A stretch of 64,000 nt of DNA from the NCBI RefSeq assembly GCF_009690625.1, contig NZ_CP033878.1:1922001-1986000 (forward strand), read 5' to 3'. Positions 39,397 through 50,327 of the stretch are shown here, one piece after another (the stretch's first letter is position 1; each line of letters opens with the position of its first letter). The notes below the pieces were generated by a model, which saw nothing but the letters and a program-made list of their open reading frames with translations, did no database searches and was not told where the DNA came from. Origin of the DNA: Halorhabdus sp. CBA1104. GTDB lineage: Archaea; Halobacteriota; Halobacteria; Halobacteriales; Haloarculaceae. Made by a program: the position numbers and the translations under genes.

Positions 39397-39415
39397 ATGC
39401 CGCCTCCCGGATTTG
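39397..39415. repeat. attL core of the integrated element
   Basis: ATGCCGCCTCCCGGATTTG, identical to 50253-50271. It corresponds to the discriminator, 3' acceptor strand and part of the T-arm of tRNA-Phe in minus orientation. This is the displaced chromosomal copy left by integration. Confidence 0.85.
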
Positions 39416-39472
39416 GCCCCTCGGGGCTGCTGTTGCCCCTGAGTCAAGCTTTCCGGCCTGAGCTAAGCAACG
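39398..39472 (-). pseudogene. tRNA-Phe-like degenerate sequence at the left end
   Basis: The match to tRNA-Phe does not stop at the 19-bp core. At the same relative position as in the real gene (39458-39467 versus 50313-50322) the D-arm sequence CTGAGCTAAG recurs, and total length (75 versus 74 bases) agrees. T8, A14 and G18-G19 positions look conserved. The acceptor 5' strand (CGTTGCT) no longer pairs with AGGCGGC and the anticodon arm is lost, so it cannot be a functional tRNA. Confidence 0.6.
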
Positions 39473-39497
39473 TTTGGCGTTCTGCGGAGAGCAAACA

Positions 39498-40508
39498 ATG
39501 GAACTCGAACCAATCGCTCCCGCAGACGCAAAGGAAATGTTCCTCGCACAACGGCGTGACGAGGTTTCAGAAGCAACGTTGCAGGGCTATCACTACCGCC
39601 TCAAGCCCTTCGTGCAGTGGTGTGACCAAGAAGGCATTAGGAATCTTAATGACCTGACTGCCCGCTCGCTTCACGAATACCGCTTGTGGCGGAAAGAAGA
39701 CGGAGACCTGAAGACGATTACCCTGAAGGGGCAGCTATCGACCCTTCGTGTGTTCCTGAAGTTCCTCGAATCAATCGACGGAGTAGAGCAGGGACTACAC
39801 GACAAGCTGCTCGTTCCCTCGGTTGAAGACGAAGAAGCAGTTAGCAACAGTATGCTTGAGGCAGAGCGGAGTGAACACATTCTCCGCTACCTCAGCAAGT
39901 ACGAATACGCCTCGAAGCGTCACACGCTCTTTGCGGTGTTGTGGCACACCGGCTGTCGGATGGGCGCGGCCCACTCTATGGATGTATCCGACTTCGACCG
40001 GGAGAATCAAGCACTAAAAATCCGGCATCGGCCCGACACCGGAACGCATCTGAAGAACAAGCAGGCTGGCGAGCGTATCTGTGCCCTCTCCGAAGAGGTG
40101 TGCGAGGTGCTGGAAGACTACATTAACGTTACCCGTGACGACGTGACCGACGAACACGGACGGGAACCCCTCTTCACGACTCAGTACGGACGGATGCACA
40201 GGTCGAAGATTCGGGAGATGGTGTATGCTGTTTCCCGTCCCTGTGCCTACGGGAAGGAATGTCCACACGGTCGAGACCCTGACTCGTGTGAGGCAGGAAA
40301 CTACACGCAGGCAAGCAAGTGTCCATCAAGCGTATCTCCCCACGATATTCGACGTGGAGCTATTACCAATCTCCTCAGGAACGAGGTTCCCAAGCAGGTT
40401 GTGTCCGACCGAGTGAACTCTTCCCCTGAAACGCTTGAAAAGCATTACTCGCAGTTGACCGAGGAGGAGAAGATGGAGCAACGAAGAGACTATCTTGAGG
40501 AACTGTGA
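39498..40508 (+). CDS. int: Tyrosine recombinase / integrase of the element
   Basis: A 336-residue XerC/D-type integrase. The N-terminal ~110 residues are a SAM-like core-binding domain (ATLQGYHYRLKPFVQWCDQE). The catalytic domain shows R154 in WHTGCRMGAAH, H282-x-x-R285 in SPHDIRRGAI, and H316-Y317 (ETLEKHYSQL) with the nucleophilic tyrosine. Cysteines at 249, 255, 264 and 275 (CAYGKECPHGRDPDSCEAGN) may bind zinc, as in many haloarchaeal integrases. I chose ATG 39498. It lies 83 bases inside attL, the usual arrangement for recombination into tRNA-Phe. Confidence 0.93.
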   Translation: MELEPIAPADAKEMFLAQRRDEVSEATLQGYHYRLKPFVQWCDQEGIRNLNDLTARSLHEYRLWRKEDGDLKTITLKGQLSTLRVFLKFLESIDGVEQGLHDKLLVPSVEDEEAVSNSMLEAERSEHILRYLSKYEYASKRHTLFAVLWHTGCRMGAAHSMDVSDFDRENQALKIRHRPDTGTHLKNKQAGERICALSEEVCEVLEDYINVTRDDVTDEHGREPLFTTQYGRMHRSKIREMVYAVSRPCAYGKECPHGRDPDSCEAGNYTQASKCPSSVSPHDIRRGAITNLLRNEVPKQVVSDRVNSSPETLEKHYSQLTEEEKMEQRRDYLEEL

Positions 40509-40513
40509 CCACT

Positions 40514-40541
40514 TGAGGCGGTAAACACACCCTCCGCCTCA
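40514..40541 (+). terminator. Hairpin after the integrase gene
   Basis: TGAGGCGG (40514-40521) and CCGCCTCA (40534-40541) form a perfect 8-bp stem five bases after the stop codon, followed by GGTTTC. The 12-base loop, TAAACACACCCT, contains the TAAACACAC motif found elsewhere in the element. Confidence 0.5.
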
Positions 40542-40663
40542 GGTTTCTAAACTACCTGTCGTTAGCTTTTGTTACCCCACGGAGCCGAGTGACGACTATA
40601 CGGAATAATCCGGGTACGGCGTAGCTGTACAATGACCTCCTTCGGTTCGTATCGGCTCTCGGT

Positions 40664-40712
40664 CACAAGCAGGGGGGAGCCTGTGTTCATCCCCCTAAAG
40701 AGGGTGCTTGTG
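40664..40712. repeat. Nested inverted repeat between integrase and glycosylase genes
   Basis: CACAAGCA (40664-40671) pairs with TGCTTGTG (40705-40712), and inside it AGGGGG (40671-40676) pairs with CCCCCT (40691-40696). It sits in the 224-base gap where two genes converge. It could be a bidirectional terminator, a structured RNA or part of a replication/recombination site. Confidence 0.45.
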
Positions 40713-40732
40713 ATTCGAGATTTCTTAATGAC

Positions 40733-41281
40733 TCAGGATGGTTGATTTCGTCGGAACTTTTCAACGTCATCACTACATCGTTCCCAGAACTCCACCCAAG
40801 TCTCTCTGTCCCAGTGCCTATGGGTATTGCTCAAGAGGTAGTGGTCCAAGCCCTTGTGATTCCAGTCAAGTTTCAGTCCCTCAAGATTCCGTCTATCAGT
40901 TCTATGGCCCGAAGCTTGTGAGTGAGTTATCTCCTTGTCGTTGATATACCGGTAGTACCACGTTGCAGCATTTTTCCCAACAAACGCAATTCGGGTTGGG
41001 TCGTGAGCATCAATCCGGTCCATCAGAGTCTCAAGACCACTCACTACTTGGTGCGCTTCAATATCGCTGTCCTTGGCTACCCTGAACTCATCAGGGTCAA
41101 CAATCTCGGTGAGATAGATACCGTACTCTTTGCCGAGTTGTCGGTAATTTTCAGGAGCTATCTGTTCGTCTGTTATCCCCGCATCCCGAAGCGTTCCCCA
41201 GAACCGATTGTTGTGATAGATGTAGTAGGCGTCTTGTTCCTTGCTCTTCGAACTCCCACAGACGAACGTATGATGCTTCAT
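40733..41281 (-). CDS. TDG/MUG-like uracil-DNA glycosylase superfamily protein, diverged
   Basis: A 182-residue protein with the layout of mismatch-type DNA glycosylases: HNNRFWGTLRDAGIT (residues ~23-37; family N-R-F-W-x-x-L-x-x-A-G), YGIYLTEIV (53-61) and PTRIAFVGKNAA (95-106). LLSNTHRHW (149-157) stands where motif 2 (family L-P-S-T-S or L-P-N-P-S) belongs. Motif 1, normally G-I-N-P-G with a catalytic asparagine, reads VCGSSKSKEQD here, so that residue is missing. It may be an altered glycosylase or only bind modified bases. I chose ATG 41281; a GTG at 41293 is also possible. It is on the same strand as, and downstream of, the primase-like gene, with a 104-base gap. Confidence 0.65.
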   Translation of the reverse strand: MKHHTFVCGSSKSKEQDAYYIYHNNRFWGTLRDAGITDEQIAPENYRQLGKEYGIYLTEIVDPDEFRVAKDSDIEAHQVVSGLETLMDRIDAHDPTRIAFVGKNAATWYYRYINDKEITHSQASGHRTDRRNLEGLKLDWNHKGLDHYLLSNTHRHWDRETWVEFWERCSDDVEKFRRNQPS

Positions 41282-41385
41282 ATCAATGTTCACAGACCCG
41301 TGTTCAATATCTATTTTGTTGCCAAGAGTGGCTAAAGAGGTAGCTGGTCAAGGGGCTTGGGCCGGTCAGGTGCTTACAGAAGTCG

Positions 41386-43152
41386 TTAGAAGTCTGGGAA
41401 GTCAAGCAGGTCCGGCCACTCGAACTTTTCTCTTTGTTCGATGACCTTCGTTCCCCTGTCGTCCACCTCCTTACACTCCGCTATTCCCAGAGTTTCGAGT
41501 AATTCCATCCGTTTCAGTACGGTTGGTTCTGTGTAGGGCGTCTGTTCCGTCAGGTCGGAAGTGGACAGGCTTCCATCGTTTTTGGGATTCAACACAGCCC
41601 GGACGACTGGACGACGCTCCTTTGGCATCGTACTCAGGGCGATACGGGCACAGACTTGAGCATCCTCTATTTCAACCTGCTTTCGACCACAGAGCAATGC
41701 GCGACCACGGGCAATATCCCGAAGAGTCGTTACAATTCGGTGAGGGCCTTCTTTCTTTGTGGTTCCATCCTTGACGGGTGCGCGAGCGTGAACGACAAGC
41801 ATAGTCAGGTACTCGAACACCTGTTGAAGCTCGTCGGAAAGGGAACTCTCCCATTCGACACTCCCGTAGCCACCGTGTTCACTCCATAGGTCGTTGAGCA
41901 ACGTCTGAACAGCCTCTTGACACCGAGCTACCTTCTTGCCGTACTCGTCGTCGTCAAACACATCCGAGACCGCCTGCGACATATCCGTCATTTTGCTCTT
42001 CTCGTGGAACACCAGCCGATTACCAGTGTGGCCCATCACGTTCCACGCTCTTTGAGGGAGTGGGGTGGTCGCACCGAGGAAGCCGAATCGGTAATCACCG
42101 GTATATCCACGTTGACCGTGTGAACCTGTGTCCCTCACGTAGCCGTCTCCGTCCATCACATTCGCAACGACGGACATCCACTTCTTGATGGAAGCTTGGT
42201 CTCCTGCGAACCAGCCACTCATATCCTTACACGTCATCAGTTTGTGCCGAATACGAGGGAGAAGGTCCATCTTCTCCAATTCCTCTTCATCCTTCGAGGG
42301 TTCTGCACTTACGAAAGAGGCGGGAGTGGCATCGTCGCTTCTCTCTACTAAATCATCTAAGCCATTGTTGAAAAACCGGATTACAGTTGATTTGCCCGCT
42401 CCAGTTTCTCCAACAATAACAAGCCCGGTGCAACTTTGCAGACCTTCGAGGAGGAGTGAAGCCGGAACGCATAGAGACGCCTCGGTTACTTCCCACGTCT
42501 GCTGGTCAAACTCTTCAAGAACCGTTTCCCGAACATCAGAGAGAGGGCTACCGGATTCTAAGCCAGCGGTGTCACCACTATCGCCGTCAGTGTGTTCATC
42601 TGCAATGTACTCCTTGTGAAGCTCCTTCAGGGCGGTCTCTCGCTCTTCTATGCTTGAGGGAGCCTGCTCAAGTCTATCTCCTGTGACAGGATAGACACGC
42701 TCTCTATCCGTCATCTCAACGTCGCTGCTACGTTCTCCACCATCGGGAAGTGGTCCCTGTACAAGGAGGAGGATATGCGTCTGTTCAGGTCCGTATTCTG
42801 CGTATGAGTCTACCGTGTCGATAATATCCTCAGCCCATTCTTCAGGTTCTCCATCGCTAACTGCGTTTTCCAACCGAATCCCGACCAAAGGGTCGTCTTC
42901 GGTTAGTGCAAACCCAAGTCCATCCATCTCAGCAGACAGTGCATCTGAGAACATCTCGGCCGCTTCATACCCGACGAACGTATCCGGGTCAGACGGGTCT
43001 ACCCGGTTGTCTGTTTTCGGGTTGGCTGGATACCTCTGCCCGTTTTCATCGGTCGACCAGCATACCCACTGGTCACGGGACTCCAACGGTTCGGGAATGT
43101 GATTGGCGAACTGTTCGTCGCTGTCGTTCGATGATTTGGTATTCGTTGACAT
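41386..43152 (-). CDS. Primase-like (AEP/NrS-1-type) domain fused to a P-loop ATPase
   Basis: A 588-residue protein. Residues ~18-170 match the N-terminal module of phage/plasmid primase-polymerases: SRDQWVCWSTDENGQRYPAN, PDTFVGYEAAEMF, DGLGFALTEDDPLVGI, and VYPVTGDRLEQAP. The catalytic acidic motif, usually I-D-L-D-x, is IRLEN (residues 92-96), so polymerase activity is probably lost. Residues ~240 onward form an ATPase with Walker A VGETGAGKSTVIRFF and later DYRFGFLGATTPLPQRAW, resembling helicase-type AAA domains; a winged-helix-like C-terminus follows (TVLKRMELLETLGIAE). Probably the replication protein of the element. ATG 43152 is chosen; the longer frame adds 33 atypical residues. Confidence 0.7.
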   Translation of the reverse strand: MSTNTKSSNDSDEQFANHIPEPLESRDQWVCWSTDENGQRYPANPKTDNRVDPSDPDTFVGYEAAEMFSDALSAEMDGLGFALTEDDPLVGIRLENAVSDGEPEEWAEDIIDTVDSYAEYGPEQTHILLLVQGPLPDGGERSSDVEMTDRERVYPVTGDRLEQAPSSIEERETALKELHKEYIADEHTDGDSGDTAGLESGSPLSDVRETVLEEFDQQTWEVTEASLCVPASLLLEGLQSCTGLVIVGETGAGKSTVIRFFNNGLDDLVERSDDATPASFVSAEPSKDEEELEKMDLLPRIRHKLMTCKDMSGWFAGDQASIKKWMSVVANVMDGDGYVRDTGSHGQRGYTGDYRFGFLGATTPLPQRAWNVMGHTGNRLVFHEKSKMTDMSQAVSDVFDDDEYGKKVARCQEAVQTLLNDLWSEHGGYGSVEWESSLSDELQQVFEYLTMLVVHARAPVKDGTTKKEGPHRIVTTLRDIARGRALLCGRKQVEIEDAQVCARIALSTMPKERRPVVRAVLNPKNDGSLSTSDLTEQTPYTEPTVLKRMELLETLGIAECKEVDDRGTKVIEQREKFEWPDLLDFPDF

Positions 43153-43548
43153 TGTTTTCCTTCTCACAAGCGAGACCCGTAGCTGGTCATCGGCAGTAGC
43201 GCTTTCGAATCCGCTACCGATTGCTGGTGAAGCGTCCAATCCTATCAGCAATCAACTGCATCACGGCCTCTGTGTGCTGATAGCAACCTCTCGTCAGGGG
43301 TCTCGCCTTACTCTATGCATAGTGCCCGAGCCACTTATTTCTTGTCAAAAATCTGTCAGGGTAGAAGTGGTATATAAATTCACTGGAGGATGGATTATTT
43401 CCATCTGTAGAGCCGATAATCTCCGAACCTAACTAATCCCACACCCAGTTTTATTTACTAATTGGGGGACCAAGGAGGAGTGTGAACACATATCACTTTC
43501 ACTTCGGCAGGCTGACCTATTTATGGTCCCCCTACAATATGTTAACCT
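43153..43548. promoter_or_regulatory. Divergent control region with a long inverted repeat
   Basis: About 400 bases, A/T-rich, between divergent operons. GGGGGACCA (43464-43472) and TGGTCCCCC (43524-43532) are perfect inverted copies. The right arm touches a TATA-like CTATTTATGG (43517-43526) located about 25 bases before the GHKL-ATPase ATG, so a bound protein would block its leaderless start. A strong TATATAAATT lies at 43371-43380 with no gene directly after it; it could drive a short RNA or a long leader. Confidence 0.55.
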
Positions 43549-45812
43549 ATGTCTGAGGCAGCCCTCTCGCCCAGAGAAATTGCCGATGAACTCATTAAAG
43601 AACGCCATACGGAGCAAGAAGTTGCTGACTTACTCCACGAAATAGAGGACCACCCTGAGGTAGATTGGGTCCCTCTGGGTCGGGAGCCGAACAACTACAG
43701 TATCGTCGAGAACCAGCAGGCAGACGCAATGGCTGCCTTCACTGAGCTGGTAGTCAACAGTATTGATGCCATTATTCTCCGTGCTTTCTTCAATCGTTTT
43801 GGAGATAGTTACTCCGGCGACGAATTTTCGTCTCTTGAAGAAGCAGCCGAGGAACTGGTAGAGGACGAGAGGGACATTATCGAGGTGATTGCTACGGGTG
43901 ACCAAAATGGTCCATTTTCACTCACTCTCTACGATAACGGATGTGGACAGCCCAGAGACGAGTTTGAGCATACATTCTTGAATGTGTTGACACCCGGTGA
44001 ATTGAAGCAGGAATTCGATTTCCTTCAGGGGAAGTATGGAATGGGGTCAACGGGGGTTCTACCGTTTTGTGGTGAAAAAGGCTACAAGCTGATTGCTTCA
44101 GCCGCCCACGATTCTCCCGGTAACTGGTCTTGGTCAATTATCCGGAAGAACCGGGACAAGACGCGCTACGAGTACTTAGTCGTGAACGGTCAACCTCTCC
44201 AATTTAATGGAGAAATCGGTGACCACGATAGCGGGACGTTCGTCAAGTGCTTCGAATTTCAGAGCGAAGTAAAGAGTACGATTACCAAACGATTCCGCCA
44301 TCGGCTGGAACGTTACATCACAGAATCTCCCATCGAAATCCAGCTAACAGATACCAGATACGATGGATGGGGGCCTGCTACCACCAAGGGACTTCTTCCA
44401 AGTATTAAAGACCGAAAGGAGTTGCTTCAGGGGAAGAGCGGATAGAACACAAATTCGATAATGATGTTCTGGGGACCAAGGATGTCGAGATTTACTTGTT
44501 CAAAGCGGAAGACCAGTTGGAAGAGATAGGCCGCTCGAAAGGAGTGAAAGAAGCCTTTGTGCGGGGAGAAAAGCAGACTCAACAGGCAATTCTATTCACT
44601 TACAACGGACAAACACACGGAGACCAAGGTCAAACCTTCATAAAACGTCGCTGTAATCTCCGTCGCATTTCCAATGACGCCCTTGTTGTCATCGACTTTA
44701 CCGATATTGACGATGCAGATGTTGTAGACCTGTTCAAACCTTCTCGGGACCGCCTTCAGAATAAAACACCGGCGAAGGTGTTGAAAAGCGAATTAGAGGA
44801 GATTATCTCGGAGAATGAGATGCTTCGAGAAGAGGAGGAGCGTCGGAAAAGCAAGGACATCAAGGAGGACACTGAAGAGTTAGAAGAGGATATTCTTGAT
44901 GAAATATTGGAGCGTAATCCCTCTCTCAAGGGGTATCTAAAAGCTGGAAACAAAACGCCAGTTATTGAGGAGGAAGGAGACGAAGAGGTTGACTATGAAG
45001 GTAACTTCTATCCCTCGAAATTCAATATAATCAAAAAATATCATTCACGGAGTGACTATCAGGTGTGGGAAGAAGACGAAGAAGACGAGATGTATGTAAA
45101 GCGAATTCCGAGTAATAGAAGCTCAATCCAGAGGTTTGAACTAGACGCTACCAACGATTTCCTTTCCAGAGAGAAAGACCCCGGCTCTATCGAAGCAGAG
45201 ATACCATCAATCATCAAATCAAAGCGGCTAAAAGACGGAATTCTAACGTTGCGGCTCGACCCGCCGGATGGACTCTCCTCGGGTGATGCTCTTACATTGA
45301 AATTGGAGGTAGAGCCAGCAGACACATCGACCGGGGAGCTAACTCGGACCTTCAGCATCCAGATTACCGACCCTGTTGAGAAGACAAGCAGGCCTTCTCC
45401 CCAAGAGGAAGAGAGCGGCGCTGGTGGTTTCGAGTTGCCTGATGCTACGTGGGTTCCAGAGGAAGACTGGGACAATCACGGTTTCAACGAGCATTCTATT
45501 GTGAGATTAGAGCCGAGTCCAGACGGTGAGATGACATTGTTTATCAATGAGGATGCAGCCCCGTTAGTCAATTTCCGGAAGCGAAATAACCTGAAAGAGA
45601 GCGGAAAAAAGTATGTCAAGCAGACCTACAAATTAGGTGTGATTCTGTATTCTGTTGGTCAGTATATGGAGATTGAACGGGAGTATGGTGAAGACCCACA
45701 CTGGGAAGAAATAGACCCTGCTGAGGTTGTTGAAACCTCAATGAAGGGTATAGCACAGTCACTTCTTGACCAAACAATCACCGACGACAAACTCGATGAC
45801 ATCACCTATTAA
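43549..45812 (+). CDS. Large GHKL-fold ATPase of the element (apparent frameshift)
   Basis: Starts MSEAALSPREIADEL. The GHKL (Hsp90/MutL/MORC-like) ATP site is clear: N-box ELVVNSIDA (residues 66-74), G1 LYDNGCGQP with aspartate 129, and glycine-rich lid GKYGMGSTGVLPF (161-173). The frame breaks at GGGG (44430-44433); one added G joins KELLQG to EERIEHKFDNDVLG, giving 754 codons. A charged coiled coil follows (residues ~405-460), then a strand-rich middle region and a C-terminal domain with VKQTYKLGVILYSVGQYM. No nuclease motif is visible. The methyltransferase gene follows after 42 bases. The role is unknown; such ATPases act as DNA clamps or conformational switches. Confidence 0.78.
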
Positions 45813-45854
45813 ATAGAAAATCTCAAATATCCTCGACGAGTGGACGGTATCAAA

Positions 45855-46939
45855 ATGGATGCTGACTCTCTACTCGACGACCTCGATTACCCTTCCCCAG
45901 ATGCTTCAGCAACTTACGAAGTGAGAAAGGGGACGCTCGGGACTTGCCAATTGCCGAGGATAGTGTAGACTTGATTTTCACGTCTCCTCCATATTGGAAA
46001 AAGAGAGACTACGGACACGAGGACCAGATAGGCCAAGAGGGTTCTCCCGAAGATTACGTTTCCAACTTGATGGAGGCATTCGACGAATGGGAACGAGTCT
46101 TGCGAGACTCGGGAACGATACTTCTCAATATCGGAGACACTTACAAAAATAAGAGCCGGATGGGGATTCCGTGGAAAGTAGCCGAAGCCGCAAGAGAAAG
46201 AGGATGGCGGGTCAGGAGTGAAATCATTTGGCACAAACCGAATGGGATGCCGACAGCTTCCGACGACCGATTTGTAAACCGCCACGAGTATATTTTCCAC
46301 TTCACCCCAAAAAGTGGGTACTATTTTGACAAGTTCGGGTACAATACCGTCTACGACGGCCCAATAGACGTGTGGAAAGTCACTCACGACCAGAACGATA
46401 CTCACCTCGCACCATTCCCGAACGAATTAGTCCAACGTGGCCTTGTAGCTGCCTGCCCTCCAGCAGTTTGTCAGTCCTGTGGTCATCCCCGACATAGAGT
46501 GGTAGAGAAATCTCTAAAGCAACTGAATGAGGACCGTCCACAGGCACGGAGAGCTATGGAGATATTTGAAGATTCAGACCTTGAGGAGAAGCATTTGGAA
46601 GCAATTCAGGCAACAGGTATTGCCGATACCGGGAAAGGACGTGAAGTACAGAATGGAACCGGTTCTAATTCTGAGGAAGTGCTTGAATTAGCATATGAGG
46701 CCAAAGATGTTCTGGGCGGTTACTTTCGAGAGTTTACTTTCCCTGAGAAAACGACAGTGGGCTGGACGGAATGTGACTGTGAAGAACGGGAGACGACACC
46801 GGGGACGGTATTAGACCCATTCGCAGGTAGTGGAACCACTATTGAGGTTGCAAAATCAATGGGACTCTCCGCAGTGGGGGTCGATATTGACCCACCTGAC
46901 AACCTCGAACAATTTACCGAATCCACCGTCGCTGAATAG
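45855..46939 (+). CDS. Beta-class DNA methyltransferase (N6-adenine or N4-cytosine; apparent frameshift)
   Basis: From ATG 45855 (MDADSLLDDLDYPSPDAS) the frame runs to GGGG at 45929-45932; one added G converts the reading to VRKGDARDLPIAEDSVDLIF, a standard methyltransferase entry, and the gene becomes 361 codons. Motif IV TSPPYW (residues 43-48) precedes motif I LDPFAGSGTTIEVAKSMG (~320-337), the beta-class order. Between them lies a target-recognition region with a likely zinc ribbon (CQSCGHPRH with ECDCEE). A shorter start at 45944 lacks the strand before motif IV. It follows the GHKL gene closely and is probably co-transcribed. No cognate restriction nuclease is recognisable. Confidence 0.85.
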
Positions 46940-47062
46940 TTCTATTAACAACAGGAATTCATTTGTACCTCCCAAAGAAATTTAACACATCTCTCCCCGA
47001 GCTAAGTAGCAGTAGTACAATTCAGAAGTTCAGTCTTCTTTTGACTGAGAGAAGTGAGTGAC

Positions 47063-47841
47063 CTATTCTTGGCCAAATAGTTCACGTAACACCTGTATAG
47101 CGCTATCTCGGACGGTTTCACTCTCCTCCTCATCATCAACATCCGAAGGGATTGTAATCCCGAACCGTCCACTATCTAATAGCTCCTGAATATTTCCTTC
47201 AGAATCGCGTGCCCTAATAAATGATAAATGTGAAAGCTTAGCAAACCCATTTGAATGACTTCTACGTTTTTAAGGTCGTTATTCTTACGTCCGACACTAA
47301 ATATCGAATTGTCAGTATCCTCCCCTGCATCATAAATTAGGTCTGCTAAGTCTTCGTCAGGCCAACTGGGATTCGGGTCTTTCTGACCGATTTCCTCTAC
47401 CTTTATTTTCCTTATTTTGGGCCGAGATTTGTAGAATGAACGCATCTGTTCCAAGTTGAGGGTTTCGTACCTCTCATTATCGTACTCAGTTTGAAACGGT
47501 TCAAAAATATAGTCTAACGCATCTGAATCGGTTACTTTCCGGGTTGACTCATAAGCATATCGACCATTATCGAGGAGAAGAAATCGCATAGTATGAACAA
47601 AATACCTCTCAACTTGTACAACATCGTCATTTTCATCGAATTCGTTTACGTCTCGTCCGACCTCTTGCTCAAAGTCAAAAAAGAGATAGTCGTTACCGAG
47701 AACGACATCTCTTGTCCCTCTACGATTGCCCTCGTACCCGACAATACCACGGTCTTCAATTCTATTCGCTATTCTTTCAAGGCTGGGAGTTGCTATATCC
47801 GATGCCTCCACTTCACCGAAGCGAAAGCGAGTTCGAGGCAC
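47063..47841 (-). CDS. Unknown protein of the element (apparent frameshift near C-terminus)
   Basis: Starts MPRTRFRFGEVEASDIATPS. The frame ends early at 47176 as read, but one added G at CCC 47246-47248 (GGG on the coding strand) joins EVIQMG to FAKLSHLSFIRARDSEGNI and runs to a stop at 47063, giving 259 residues with an acidic tail (SDVDDEEESETVRDS). No known domain is recognised. The mixed alpha/beta pattern with VVLGNDYLFFDFEQEVGRD suggests a soluble protein. It converges with the methyltransferase gene and diverges from the membrane-protein gene. Confidence 0.6.
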
Positions 47842-47895
47842 TAATCAAGAATATGTGCATTAGCGTTAAAATACTATTCCCATAATAAGTCACTA

Positions 47896-48447
47896 ATGGG
47901 GCTTGACCTGCGTGATAGATATAAAGAGGTTATCCGCTCTGTAGTGTTAGTCGGGTTATTAGCAATATTATCTATCTTTGATATTGTGACTATTTCTTCC
48001 TTTTCTCCGGGATTAGCCGCAGCCATATTCACGGTGATAATTGGAACAACAGCGACTCTCTTTTCTATTTTAGTCTTGGTAGGGGAGATAATATCGAGAG
48101 CAGAGTCGAAAGAGTATCTTGAGGATGTGAGGAGAACATTTGAATGGCCAGTGAAGGCTGGCGTAATTGGATTTCTTCTTTCGATTATATCCGACTTGTA
48201 CTATTTGAATCTAGAATTTATCGGGACCAATGAATTGCTTTGGTTCACTTTCTCTGAATGGAATTCTCTGGTTATTTCAGGTATACTGTTCTTTTCCATC
48301 CTCTCATTTAAGAACGCATTCGGATTTATCCTTCTGACAGTGTTAGGCTGGAAAGGGAAAGATAGCTCTGATAAAGACGATTGTGATGAAGTCGTCATAA
48401 GTAAAGTTGTGATTGAGGTAGAAGATGCCAATGAGAATGAAGATTAG
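47896..48447 (+). CDS. Small four-helix membrane protein of unknown function
   Basis: A 183-residue protein with about four membrane segments: SVVLVGLLAILSIFDIV, AAIFTVIIGTTATLFSIL (leading into a charged loop), VKAGVIGFLLSIISDLYYL, and SLVISGILFFSILSFKNAF. A charged C-terminal tail follows (SSDKDDCDEVVISK). The gene is much richer in A/T than the chromosome. Small membrane proteins divergent from an unknown cytosolic partner are common in anti-phage modules, but no specific family is recognised. Confidence 0.68.
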   Translation: MGLDLRDRYKEVIRSVVLVGLLAILSIFDIVTISSFSPGLAAAIFTVIIGTTATLFSILVLVGEIISRAESKEYLEDVRRTFEWPVKAGVIGFLLSIISDLYYLNLEFIGTNELLWFTFSEWNSLVISGILFFSILSFKNAFGFILLTVLGWKGKDSSDKDDCDEVVISKVVIEVEDANENED

Positions 48448-48520
48448 GACGGATTCTGGTAGCGATTAAAATTCCTCGCCCCACGAAGAACTGTCAAGTC
48501 GGAACCTATGTTGTCTTCAG

Positions 48521-48576
48521 CGAAGACGAGTAAACACACCCCTCCCCCAGAGAGTCAGTGTGTTCACTTCTCTTTA
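48521..48576. repeat. Element-specific repeat, copy upstream of the PH-like/SHOCT gene
   Basis: CGAAGACGAGTAAACACACCC (48521-48541), then a C-rich tract, GAGAGTCAG and GTGTGTTCACTTCTCTTTA. GTAAACACAC and GTGTGTTCAC are imperfect inverted copies (9 of 10), so it can form a hairpin. A matching copy lies downstream of the same gene at 49877-49958. Confidence 0.55.
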
Positions 48577-48625
48577 CGAAATGGCTACACAATCAATATG
48601 TGTATGACTTGCCATAACAATCTCT

Positions 48626-49780
48626 ATGGGATTGTTCAGTAGTGGACCGGACGAAGAAACACAGGAGTTGATTGATACCGCGAAAGGAGATTCTGTCACA
48701 GCCGACAAGCTGACCAAAGCAGAGACAGGTCGGATGGCGTGGGACCGGCTGAATGAGGGACCACTAATTGACCACCTTTCCGATGGCGAGCAGCCTCACT
48801 ATATTTTCTCTCAGCAAAGCAAGTCCGGCGTTCGAGTAACGGACGGAGAGAGCATTAAACCGGAAGGCAAGTATCGGACGATGATGGCGGTAACTGAGAA
48901 CCGGGTTCTGTTCACTGCTGGCGGGGACAATGGTGATTCGATATTCTCTGTTGGTTACGACTCCATAATAGATATAGAAGCAGAGAGTGGCCCAGAGAAG
49001 AGTGATGGAAGCGGGAAGGTCACTGTGTCCCTGAACACAGAAGACACGTCGATTACCTTCCCAATCAAGACCGCAGGTTCAGTGAACTTGGCAGATGTAC
49101 ATTCCGATGCCAACGAGGTACAGGAAGCGGTTGATTACATTTCCTCACGGGCAGCCGCAAAAGTAGAACGGACAGAGAAAGAGAAGTCGTCTATTCGTAG
49201 TGCCCGAAGACGAATCTCAGACGAGCAGAGTGGGGATTACGTCACACCTGAGAGAGTGAACAAGGTGAAAGACATTCTGGATAGTGGTGAAGAGATTCAC
49301 TATCTGACGCGAGGCTCTACCGTTGATGTTGAAGGGTCATCAGCGGGTGAATCGTTGTGGGGAGACGACAGAAGCCGGAAGAGCGGAACGAAGGGGTACG
49401 TTCGAGCAGTAATCACAGACAGCCGGGTAGCAGTCAAGATACCACAACTAACCGGTAATGACCGGCGTTCTGTACCCTACGAGAGCATAACAAGTGTGGA
49501 CTTGGATACCGGTCTGGTCAACAAGCGCCTTTCTCTACAAACACCGGGACAGACCTATCATATCGAAGCTCACGAACCCGGCAAAGGCGAGGTACGGCAA
49601 GCGGTCAAATTCATCCGGAACAAGATTGCCGAATCTAATGAGGAAACAGTTGTAGTCGAAGATTCGTCTGAACCGGACCCCACAGAGCAATTGAAGAACC
49701 TGAAGGAACTCCACAAAGAGGGTGTACTGACTGACAAGGAATTTGAGGAGAAGAAATCAGACCTACTCGACAAGATTTGA
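48626..49780 (+). CDS. PH-like domain protein with C-terminal SHOCT motif
   Basis: A 384-residue soluble protein. Two similar strand-rich units (residues ~45-170 and ~205-330) resemble bacterial PH domains: each holds a segment of the type MMAVTENRVLFTAG / RAVITDSRVAVKIP followed by VGYDSIIDIEA / VPYESITSVDLD. The C-terminal ~34 residues are a SHOCT helix pair: TEQLKNLKELHKEGVLTDKEF then EEKKSDLLDKI. Such proteins are often oligomeric and membrane- or partner-associated; function is unknown. The gene is flanked on both sides by the TAAACACAC repeat, as if it were a separate cassette. Confidence 0.72.
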   Translation: MGLFSSGPDEETQELIDTAKGDSVTADKLTKAETGRMAWDRLNEGPLIDHLSDGEQPHYIFSQQSKSGVRVTDGESIKPEGKYRTMMAVTENRVLFTAGGDNGDSIFSVGYDSIIDIEAESGPEKSDGSGKVTVSLNTEDTSITFPIKTAGSVNLADVHSDANEVQEAVDYISSRAAAKVERTEKEKSSIRSARRRISDEQSGDYVTPERVNKVKDILDSGEEIHYLTRGSTVDVEGSSAGESLWGDDRSRKSGTKGYVRAVITDSRVAVKIPQLTGNDRRSVPYESITSVDLDTGLVNKRLSLQTPGQTYHIEAHEPGKGEVRQAVKFIRNKIAESNEETVVVEDSSEPDPTEQLKNLKELHKEGVLTDKEFEEKKSDLLDKI

Positions 49781-49876
49781 ATCTCGTTAAATTTTCTTAG
49801 CCCACGCAGTCCGGTCCCAGAGACAACAGTATTCAAAGTGTAGACCACCTGTGAATCATTATACAGTTGCCTTCTA

Positions 49877-49958
49877 CGAAGGCGAGTAAACACACTCCCC
49901 CCTTAGAGAGATTCAGCAGAAAACCGGCAGGAGTGTGTTCACTTTTCTTAACGACCAG
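49877..49958. repeat. Element-specific repeat, copy downstream of the PH-like/SHOCT gene
   Basis: CGAAGGCGAGTAAACACACTCC, a C tract, AGAGAG, and GTGTGTTCACTTTTCTTAA correspond base for base in order to the copy at 48521-48576, with a longer middle. The rest of the gap 49781-50252 up to attR holds no gene I can support; a 99-codon frame at 49935 overlaps the repeat and lacks protein character. Confidence 0.55.
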
Positions 49959-50252
49959 AGAGAGGGGTCGGAAAGCCAGTTAATCTGGTTGCATATGGTT
50001 GCAATTTCCAGAGCGGGGTGGGCCGGTCTTTCAATTGGCTTCCAACAGCGCGATATAAAAAAGAGGAGCCTAAGACGCTTAGACGAACAAAATCGGCCAC
50101 ACCGAAAGCTTCTAGGAGTCACAGCGCGTTTCGATTATTGCAGAACGCCAGACGTGAGCCGGTGCGTCCGGGGACCGGTTGAAATCTCACAAGGAAAGCG
50201 CGAATCGCAGGAGGGCGCGGATACTCTCGGCTAAGGTTCGTGCGGCCGCAGG

Positions 50253-50271
50253 ATGCCGCCTCCCGGATTTG
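50253..50271. repeat. attR core of the integrated element
   Basis: Identical 19 bp to 39397-39415, here forming the 3' end of the intact tRNA-Phe, so integration reconstituted a complete tRNA gene. Confidence 0.85.
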
Positions 50272-50327
50272 AACCGGGGACAGCTCGATCTTCAGTCGAG
50301 TGCTCTCCCAGTCTGAGCTAAGGCGGC
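50254..50327 (-). tRNA. tRNA-Phe (anticodon GAA)
   Basis: The reverse complement is a 74-base tRNA: acceptor GCCGCCT/AGGCGGC, discriminator A, D-arm AGCTCAGACTGGGAGAGC, anticodon stem CTCGA/TCGAG with loop CTGAAGA (anticodon GAA), T-arm CCCGGTTCAAATCCGGG. It serves as integration target for the element on its 3' side. Confidence 0.96.

What the first reader, a model, noticed from the sequence alone, without database searches (positions are those of the whole stretch)
40733..41281. Mobile-element DNA glycosylase-like protein lacking the catalytic asparagine
The scaffold of TDG/MUG glycosylases is visible (N-R-F-W, G-I-x-L-T-x-I-V, A-F-x-G-K) but motif 1 is GSSKS instead of GINPG and motif 2 is LLSNT. 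A glycosylase-like protein on an element that also carries a methyltransferase could act on, or recognise, modified bases in invading DNA.
Basis: partly seen in the sequence, partly recalled or inferred. Interest (0 to 1): 0.65.

Follow-up and report, generated by a model that had tools for sequence, protein, structure and literature searches.

The report
Mobile archaeal glycosylase with remodelled active site
A salt-loving archaeon carries, on a mobile DNA element that swaps antiviral genes, a small enzyme-like protein of the family that clips abnormal bases out of DNA; it has lost the family's textbook catalytic residue but keeps a strictly preserved, rebuilt active site, so it is more likely a working base-remover (perhaps aimed at invading DNA) than a dead relic.

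Summary
[quoted passage not shown] two AlphaFold models match MUG/TDG crystal structures, E 1e-6 to 1e-8). The motif-1 asparagine is absent: the motif-1 loop is 3 residues shorter (CGSSKSK) and motif 2 is LLSNTHRHWD. "Lacking the catalytic Asn" does not mean dead. UDG families 4-6 lack it, and the closest solved relative, D. radiodurans MUG (MUG2), uses Asp93 instead. Five haloarchaeal orthologues (71-94% identical) keep both loops invariant, plus Glu59 at the base-reading position (TDG N191) and Asp71, a possible Asp93 counterpart (aligners disagree).

The gene is a one-gene cargo on a 10.9-kb tRNA-Phe integrative element. A sister element lacks exactly this gene, and sister elements swap restriction/type IV cargo in the middle. 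The host has three other UDGs, so routine uracil repair is unlikely to be its main job. Best reading: an active MUG2-like glycosylase carried as accessory, probably anti-invader, cargo, comparable in role but not shown related to Brig1/Brig3. Defence and substrate are inferred.

The parts
40733..41281 (-). glycosylase-like gene, 182 aa (MKHHTFVCGSSKSK...)
41240..41260 (-). motif 1 loop C8-K14 (CGSSKSK), 3 residues shorter than CGINPGLSS of Mug/TDG; catalytic Asn absent; invariant in 5 orthologues
41198..41227 (-). YYIYHNNRFW (residues 19-28), aligns with the (Y/F)-x-x-x-x-N-R-F-W helix region of MUG/TDG
41105..41107 (-). Glu59, at the base-reading position after beta-2 (T-x: TDG N191, drMUG D84, Mug K68); invariant
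41069..41071 (-). Asp71, invariant acid, candidate counterpart of drMUG catalytic Asp93 (MAFFT multiple alignment agrees; hhalign and hmmsearch do not)
40889..40927 (-). insertion segment THSQASGHRTDRR (residues 119-131), THSQASGH invariant in the family
40808..40837 (-). motif 2 / wedge loop LLSNTHRHWD (149-158), shorter than LPNPSGLSRV or LPSTSPLGHNHF; invariant
39397..50271 (.). integrative element: 19-bp direct repeat ATGCCGCCTCCCGGATTTG at 39397-39415 and 50253-50271 (3' end of tRNA-Phe 50254-50327)
   Evidence: G+C drops from 0.60-0.65 outside to 0.41-0.55 inside
39474..40508 (+). tyrosine integrase of the element
41386..43251 (-). primase/helicase-like protein (element replication)
   Evidence: PHROG DNA primase/helicase E 2e-30
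40733..41385 (-). one-gene indel: segment absent from the sister element L029, where the two flanking homologous stretches lie about 20 bp apart

Best explanation
An active DNA glycosylase of the MUG/TDG branch of the UDG superfamily, closest to the MUG2 (D. radiodurans MUG) type, with remodelled motif 1 and motif 2 loops. It is carried as a discrete accessory gene by tRNA-targeted integrative elements that ferry defence genes between haloarchaea. Proposed mechanism: the protein flips a base into a pocket walled by the YY..NRFW segment, reads its Watson-Crick face with Glu59, lets an acid of the beta-2 loop (Asp71 most likely) position the attacking water in place of the missing motif-1 Asn, and wedges the LLSNTHRHW loop into the gap, leaving an abasic site. 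Shown: gene, fold, relationship, invariance, mobility, one-gene cargo status. Inferred: catalysis, residue roles, and the target, for which I think a modified base in invading viral or plasmid DNA likeliest; an acidic reader fits a cytosine-type or otherwise modified base better than plain uracil.
For: UDG fold in two models, nearest to TDG, drMUG and Mug, and by sequence profile nearest to drMUG. Purifying selection: window versus Halovenus dN/dS 0.15; against the other three relatives synonymous differences are saturated (pS 0.80-0.90) with pN 0.14-0.19. Motif-1 loop 7/7 and motif-2 loop 10/10 invariant while 59% of all positions are. The closest solved relative and families 4-6 work without the motif-1 Asn; family 4 positions water with N89, nine residues after its base-reading N80, the same spacing as D84-D93 in drMUG. 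An acid is needed in the pocket of Brig1 (E147) and Brig3 (D127). The host already has three other UDG-superfamily genes. Patchy spread: 5 of 391 class genomes, in five genera of two families. One-gene cargo between integrase and primase; sister elements at tRNA-Phe carry a DNA methyltransferase plus DrmC-like PLD protein or a GmrSD-type restriction protein in the variable slot; the G139 copy sits between an integrase and type I HsdM/HsdS genes.
Against: No activity is shown. The Asp93 counterpart is uncertain: MAFFT puts it at D71, hhalign at a gap, hmmsearch at A69. Both catalytic loops are shorter than in any relative aligned here, which could also fit a non-catalytic protein. Model confidence is moderate and lowest in the motif-1 loop. 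The Halonotius copy sits alone in a glycerol-3-phosphate gene cluster, not in a defence locus. No relative was found in viral contigs or phage records, and plasmids gave only distant ones.
Confidence: 0.45

Rival explanations
1. Ordinary accessory repair enzyme: a MUG2-type glycosylase that removes uracil, mismatched thymine or other damaged bases for the element or host, with no defence role.
For: Closest solved relative drMUG is a repair enzyme that processes U:G, U:A and single-stranded U. One copy (Halonotius roseus) is a lone gene among glycerol-3-phosphate genes. Next to a primase in two elements.
Against: Host already has three other UDG-superfamily genes. Very patchy, mobile distribution and discrete cargo status next to integrases and restriction genes. 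The base-reading position is Glu, not the uracil-reading Asn of UNG and family 4.
Confidence: 0.27
2. Catalytically dead glycosylase fold that binds a modified base or abasic site as a reader or competitor.
For: Motif-1 Asn gone with three loop residues, and motif-2 loop shortened; in TDG, N140A costs more than 10,000-fold.
Against: Active relatives lack the same Asn. Invariant acids E59, D62 and D71 lie in the strand and loop that supply catalysis in drMUG and family 4. No partner domain or effector is fused to the protein.
Confidence: 0.17
3. Element-serving factor: acts in element replication, integration or protection of the element against marks on host or rival DNA.
For: Lies between integrase and primase and is co-directional with the primase in the window and in Halovenus.
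Against: A sister element with the same integrase and primase lacks it; in H-GB1-1 it sits at the other end of the element; in G139 the integrase and neighbours differ.
Confidence: 0.1

Closest known systems
D. radiodurans MUG (DR_0715, MUG2 class; PDB 2c2p/2c2q)
   Different: About 20% identity in the structural alignment; motif-1 and motif-2 loops about 3 residues longer in drMUG; Glu instead of Asp after the beta-2 Thr; extra about 20-residue segment with THSQASGH in the new family; Asp93 counterpart not settled.
E. coli Mug / human TDG (UDG family 2)
   Same: Fold (top hits of the second model), NRFW segment, T-x after beta-2, GK strand end.
   Different: Catalytic Asn (Mug N18, TDG N140) and GINPG absent; NPSGL-type wedge replaced by LLSNTHRHW.
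Brig1 / Brig3 anti-phage DNA glycosylases
   Same: UDG-superfamily glycosylases in defence contexts; acidic residue needed in the base pocket (E147, D127).
   Different: Brig1's best structural match is a family 4 UDG, while this protein's are TDG/MUG; sequence relationship not tested (no Brig sequence at hand); no activity data here.
Family 6 hypoxanthine-DNA glycosylase (TIGR04274)
   Same: Weak profile match (E 0.0027); the motif-1 catalytic residue is also missing in this family.
   Different: 17.8 bits against a cut-off of 80, so not a member.

Membership tests
UDG superfamily (Pfam PF03167) | profile match over the curated cut-off | tested here: met
   24.9 against 24.3 bits, only just over
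UDG superfamily (Pfam PF03167) | UDG alpha/beta fold | tested here: met
   two AlphaFold models; all PDB matches at E<=0.001 are UDG-superfamily proteins
MUG/TDG (family 2) | motif 1 G-I-N-P-G with catalytic Asn | tested here: not met
   CGSSKSK, invariant in five orthologues
MUG/TDG (family 2) | NCBIfam Mug equivalog cut-off | tested here: not met
   43.3 against 144 bits
MUG/TDG (family 2) | motif 2 wedge of N-P-S-G-L type | tested here: not met
   LLSNTHRHWD
MUG2 (drMUG type) | MUG scaffold without motif-1 Asn | tested here: met
MUG2 (drMUG type) | catalytic Asp93 in the loop after beta-2 | tested here: inconclusive
   D71 is invariant and matches in the multiple alignment; two profile methods place Asp93 elsewhere
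MUG2 (drMUG type) | uracil excision | not testable with these tools
   needs purified protein
Family 6 HDG | TIGR04274 cut-off | tested here: not met
   17.8 against 80 bits
Brig defence glycosylases | sequence relationship to Brig1/2/3 | not tested
   no Brig sequence at hand; PADLOC-DB of 2023 gave no match and predates the 2024 Brig1 paper
Brig defence glycosylases | location with defence genes | tested here: inconclusive
   on tRNA-Phe integrative elements in three cases, two of them with restriction-type genes, and beside type I R-M in a fourth, but alone in a metabolic cluster in Halonotius
Brig defence glycosylases | excises a virus-type modified base and blocks virus growth | not testable with these tools
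   experiment needed

The most novel reading that the evidence does not exclude
The first archaeal antiviral base-excision system: a mobile MUG2-derived glycosylase with a rebuilt active site that excises a modified base (for example a methylated or hypermodified cytosine, or a 7-deazaguanine) from halovirus or rival-element DNA, moving as single-gene cargo of tRNA-targeted elements.
Probability: 0.3. Interest if true: 0.75.

Novelty: new variant of a known kind. Interest (0 to 1): 0.45.

Why it matters
Glycosylase-based immunity has been described in bacteria against phages with modified bases (Brig1, Brig2, Brig3), and the Brig1 authors predicted a wider family with other targets. Haloviruses are known to carry methylated cytosine or adenine (PMC4284463) and 7-deazaguanine modifications (PMC8651126). 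A mobile haloarchaeal glycosylase with an altered pocket is a concrete, easily tested candidate for the archaeal side of that arms race. It also adds a natural test of how the UDG superfamily catalyses without the motif-1 Asn.

Tried and rejected
Relatives in viral contigs and phages, and of the methanogen relative in viral contigs: none found; plasmids gave only distant Mug/MUG2 proteins. A pseudogene reading was rejected: open frame and strong conservation in five genera. A chance motif resemblance was rejected by fold and profile searches. Membership of family 6 HDG was rejected by score. A functional pair with the element's methyltransferase was considered and downgraded: that ORF lacks the first about 50 profile positions (PADLOC match starts at 51/390) with N-terminal-like coding in another frame, the MORC-like ATPase gene is split where a relative has one 762-aa frame, and the cargo differs in sister elements. 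Placing drMUG Asp93 by three aligners gave three answers, so I do not claim it. A bacterial-type promoter/terminator scan was uninformative in an archaeon.

Full report
What is there. The ORF at 40733-41281 (-) encodes 182 aa; the ATG at 41281 is the conserved start. It is a UDG-superfamily protein: Pfam UDG just over its gathering score, NCBIfam Mug at E 3e-11 but below the equivalog cut-off, D. radiodurans MUG and E. coli Mug as nearest PDB sequences. AlphaFold2 models of the window protein (pLDDT 71.5, pTM 0.71) and of its Haloarculaceae H-GB1-1 orthologue (73.6, 0.75) match drMUG, TDG and Mug best (E 2.7e-6 for 2c2q; E 2.6e-8 for TDG). The models are least sure at motif 1 (residues 12-15 below pLDDT 50), and no coordinates were available, so no geometry is read from them.

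The missing asparagine. In Mug and TDG the motif-1 Asn positions water; in TDG its loss costs over 10,000-fold (PMC9800633). Here the loop reads CGSSKSK, three residues shorter than CGINPGLSS. But this residue is also missing in UDG families 4, 5 and 6 (PMC5387724), and D. radiodurans MUG uses Asp93 (PMC5128194). The wild-type and mutant chains 2c2p and 2c2q differ in the stretch SGVDAAL against SGVAAAL, which places Asp93 nine residues after the beta-2 Asp84. Family 4 uses N89, nine after base-reading N80. The haloarchaeal family has a beta-2 loop about three residues longer, with invariant E59, D62 and D71. The multiple alignment pairs D71 with Asp93, but hhalign and hmmsearch do not, so this is a candidate only. 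E59 falls at the base-reading position in every alignment that covers it (TDG N191, drMUG D84, Mug K68). An acid there recalls the essential Brig1 E147 and Brig3 D127; equivalence with the Brig residues is inferred from the papers' own comparisons.

Selection. Five orthologues are known here, from five genera in two families: 5 of 391 class genomes and 1 of 7 species of the window's own genus. Pairwise, pN is 0.14-0.20 with pS 0.80-0.995, apart from the close window-Halovenus pair (dN/dS 0.15). Motif-1 loop (7/7), beta-2 segment 53-63 (11/11), THSQASGH (8/8) and motif 2 (10/10) are invariant while 105 of 177 positions are overall. The two motif loops are fixed beforehand by the superfamily; the limits of the other segments were chosen after seeing the alignment, so the pooled Fisher test is not to be taken at face value.

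The element. A 19-bp direct repeat of the tRNA-Phe 3' end (39397-39415; 50253-50271) encloses integrase, glycosylase, primase/helicase, MORC-like ATPase, methyltransferase and small genes. G+C falls from 0.60-0.65 to 0.41-0.55 inside. Halovenus carboxidivorans has the sister element at the same site: the left 4 kb (integrase, glycosylase, primase) is 93.5% identical and the right 1.8 kb 86%, while the middle is swapped for an N6 methyltransferase, a PLD protein with a weak DrmC match and an unknown gene. In genome G083 the same element (integrase region 92% identical) lacks the glycosylase: homology stops at window 40732, one base before the stop codon, and resumes at about 41385-41388, with about 20 bp between; its middle carries a GmrSD-type protein. 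So the glycosylase is a discrete, gained-or-lost gene. In H-GB1-1 it lies at the tRNA end of a related tRNA-Phe element, in G139 next to another integrase and type I HsdM/HsdS, in Halonotius roseus alone within glycerol-3-phosphate genes. A distant MUG2 relative in another class of the same phylum sits beside HsdM in a type I R-M locus.

Function. The host has three other UDG-superfamily genes, so basic uracil repair is probably covered. Mobility, single-gene cargo status and company of restriction genes favour an accessory role, most likely against foreign DNA; haloviruses with modified cytosine, adenine or 7-deazaguanine exist. This is context, not proof: one of five copies has no defence neighbours, five loci are few, and mobile islands collect many gene kinds.

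Verdict. Observation confirmed; interpretation partly supported. It is a divergent, probably active branch of the MUG/TDG group next to MUG2, with rebuilt motifs 1 and 2: a new variant of a known kind.

Noticed in passing
window 43549-45812: MORC/MutL-type GHKL ATPase gene split into two ORFs in different frames (298 and 438 aa); a same-genus relative (G050) has a single 762-aa frame. Frameshifted gene or sequencing error.
   Followed up: partly
window 45800-46939: DNA methyltransferase ORF starts internally (profile match begins at position 51 of 390); N-terminal-like coding lies upstream in another frame. Looks frameshifted.
   Followed up: partly
window 39397-50271; L027 1006-13694; L029 2004-10023: Family of tRNA-Phe integrative elements with conserved ends (integrase/primase and a bPH-SHOCT protein) and a swapped middle carrying different restriction or type IV genes: a defence-cargo carrier worth its own study.
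   Followed up: partly
L008 2973-5048, L006 15373-17169, L014 10062-11855: About 600-690-aa proteins sharing an 'EALPAMGKS'-like N-terminus near the glycosylase or integrases, without Pfam family for two of them; probably a helicase-like element protein.
   Followed up: no
L015 6518-13133: In Halonotius roseus the glycosylase gene sits between glycerol-3-phosphate dehydrogenase genes with no integrase in view; how it got there is unexplained.
   Followed up: no
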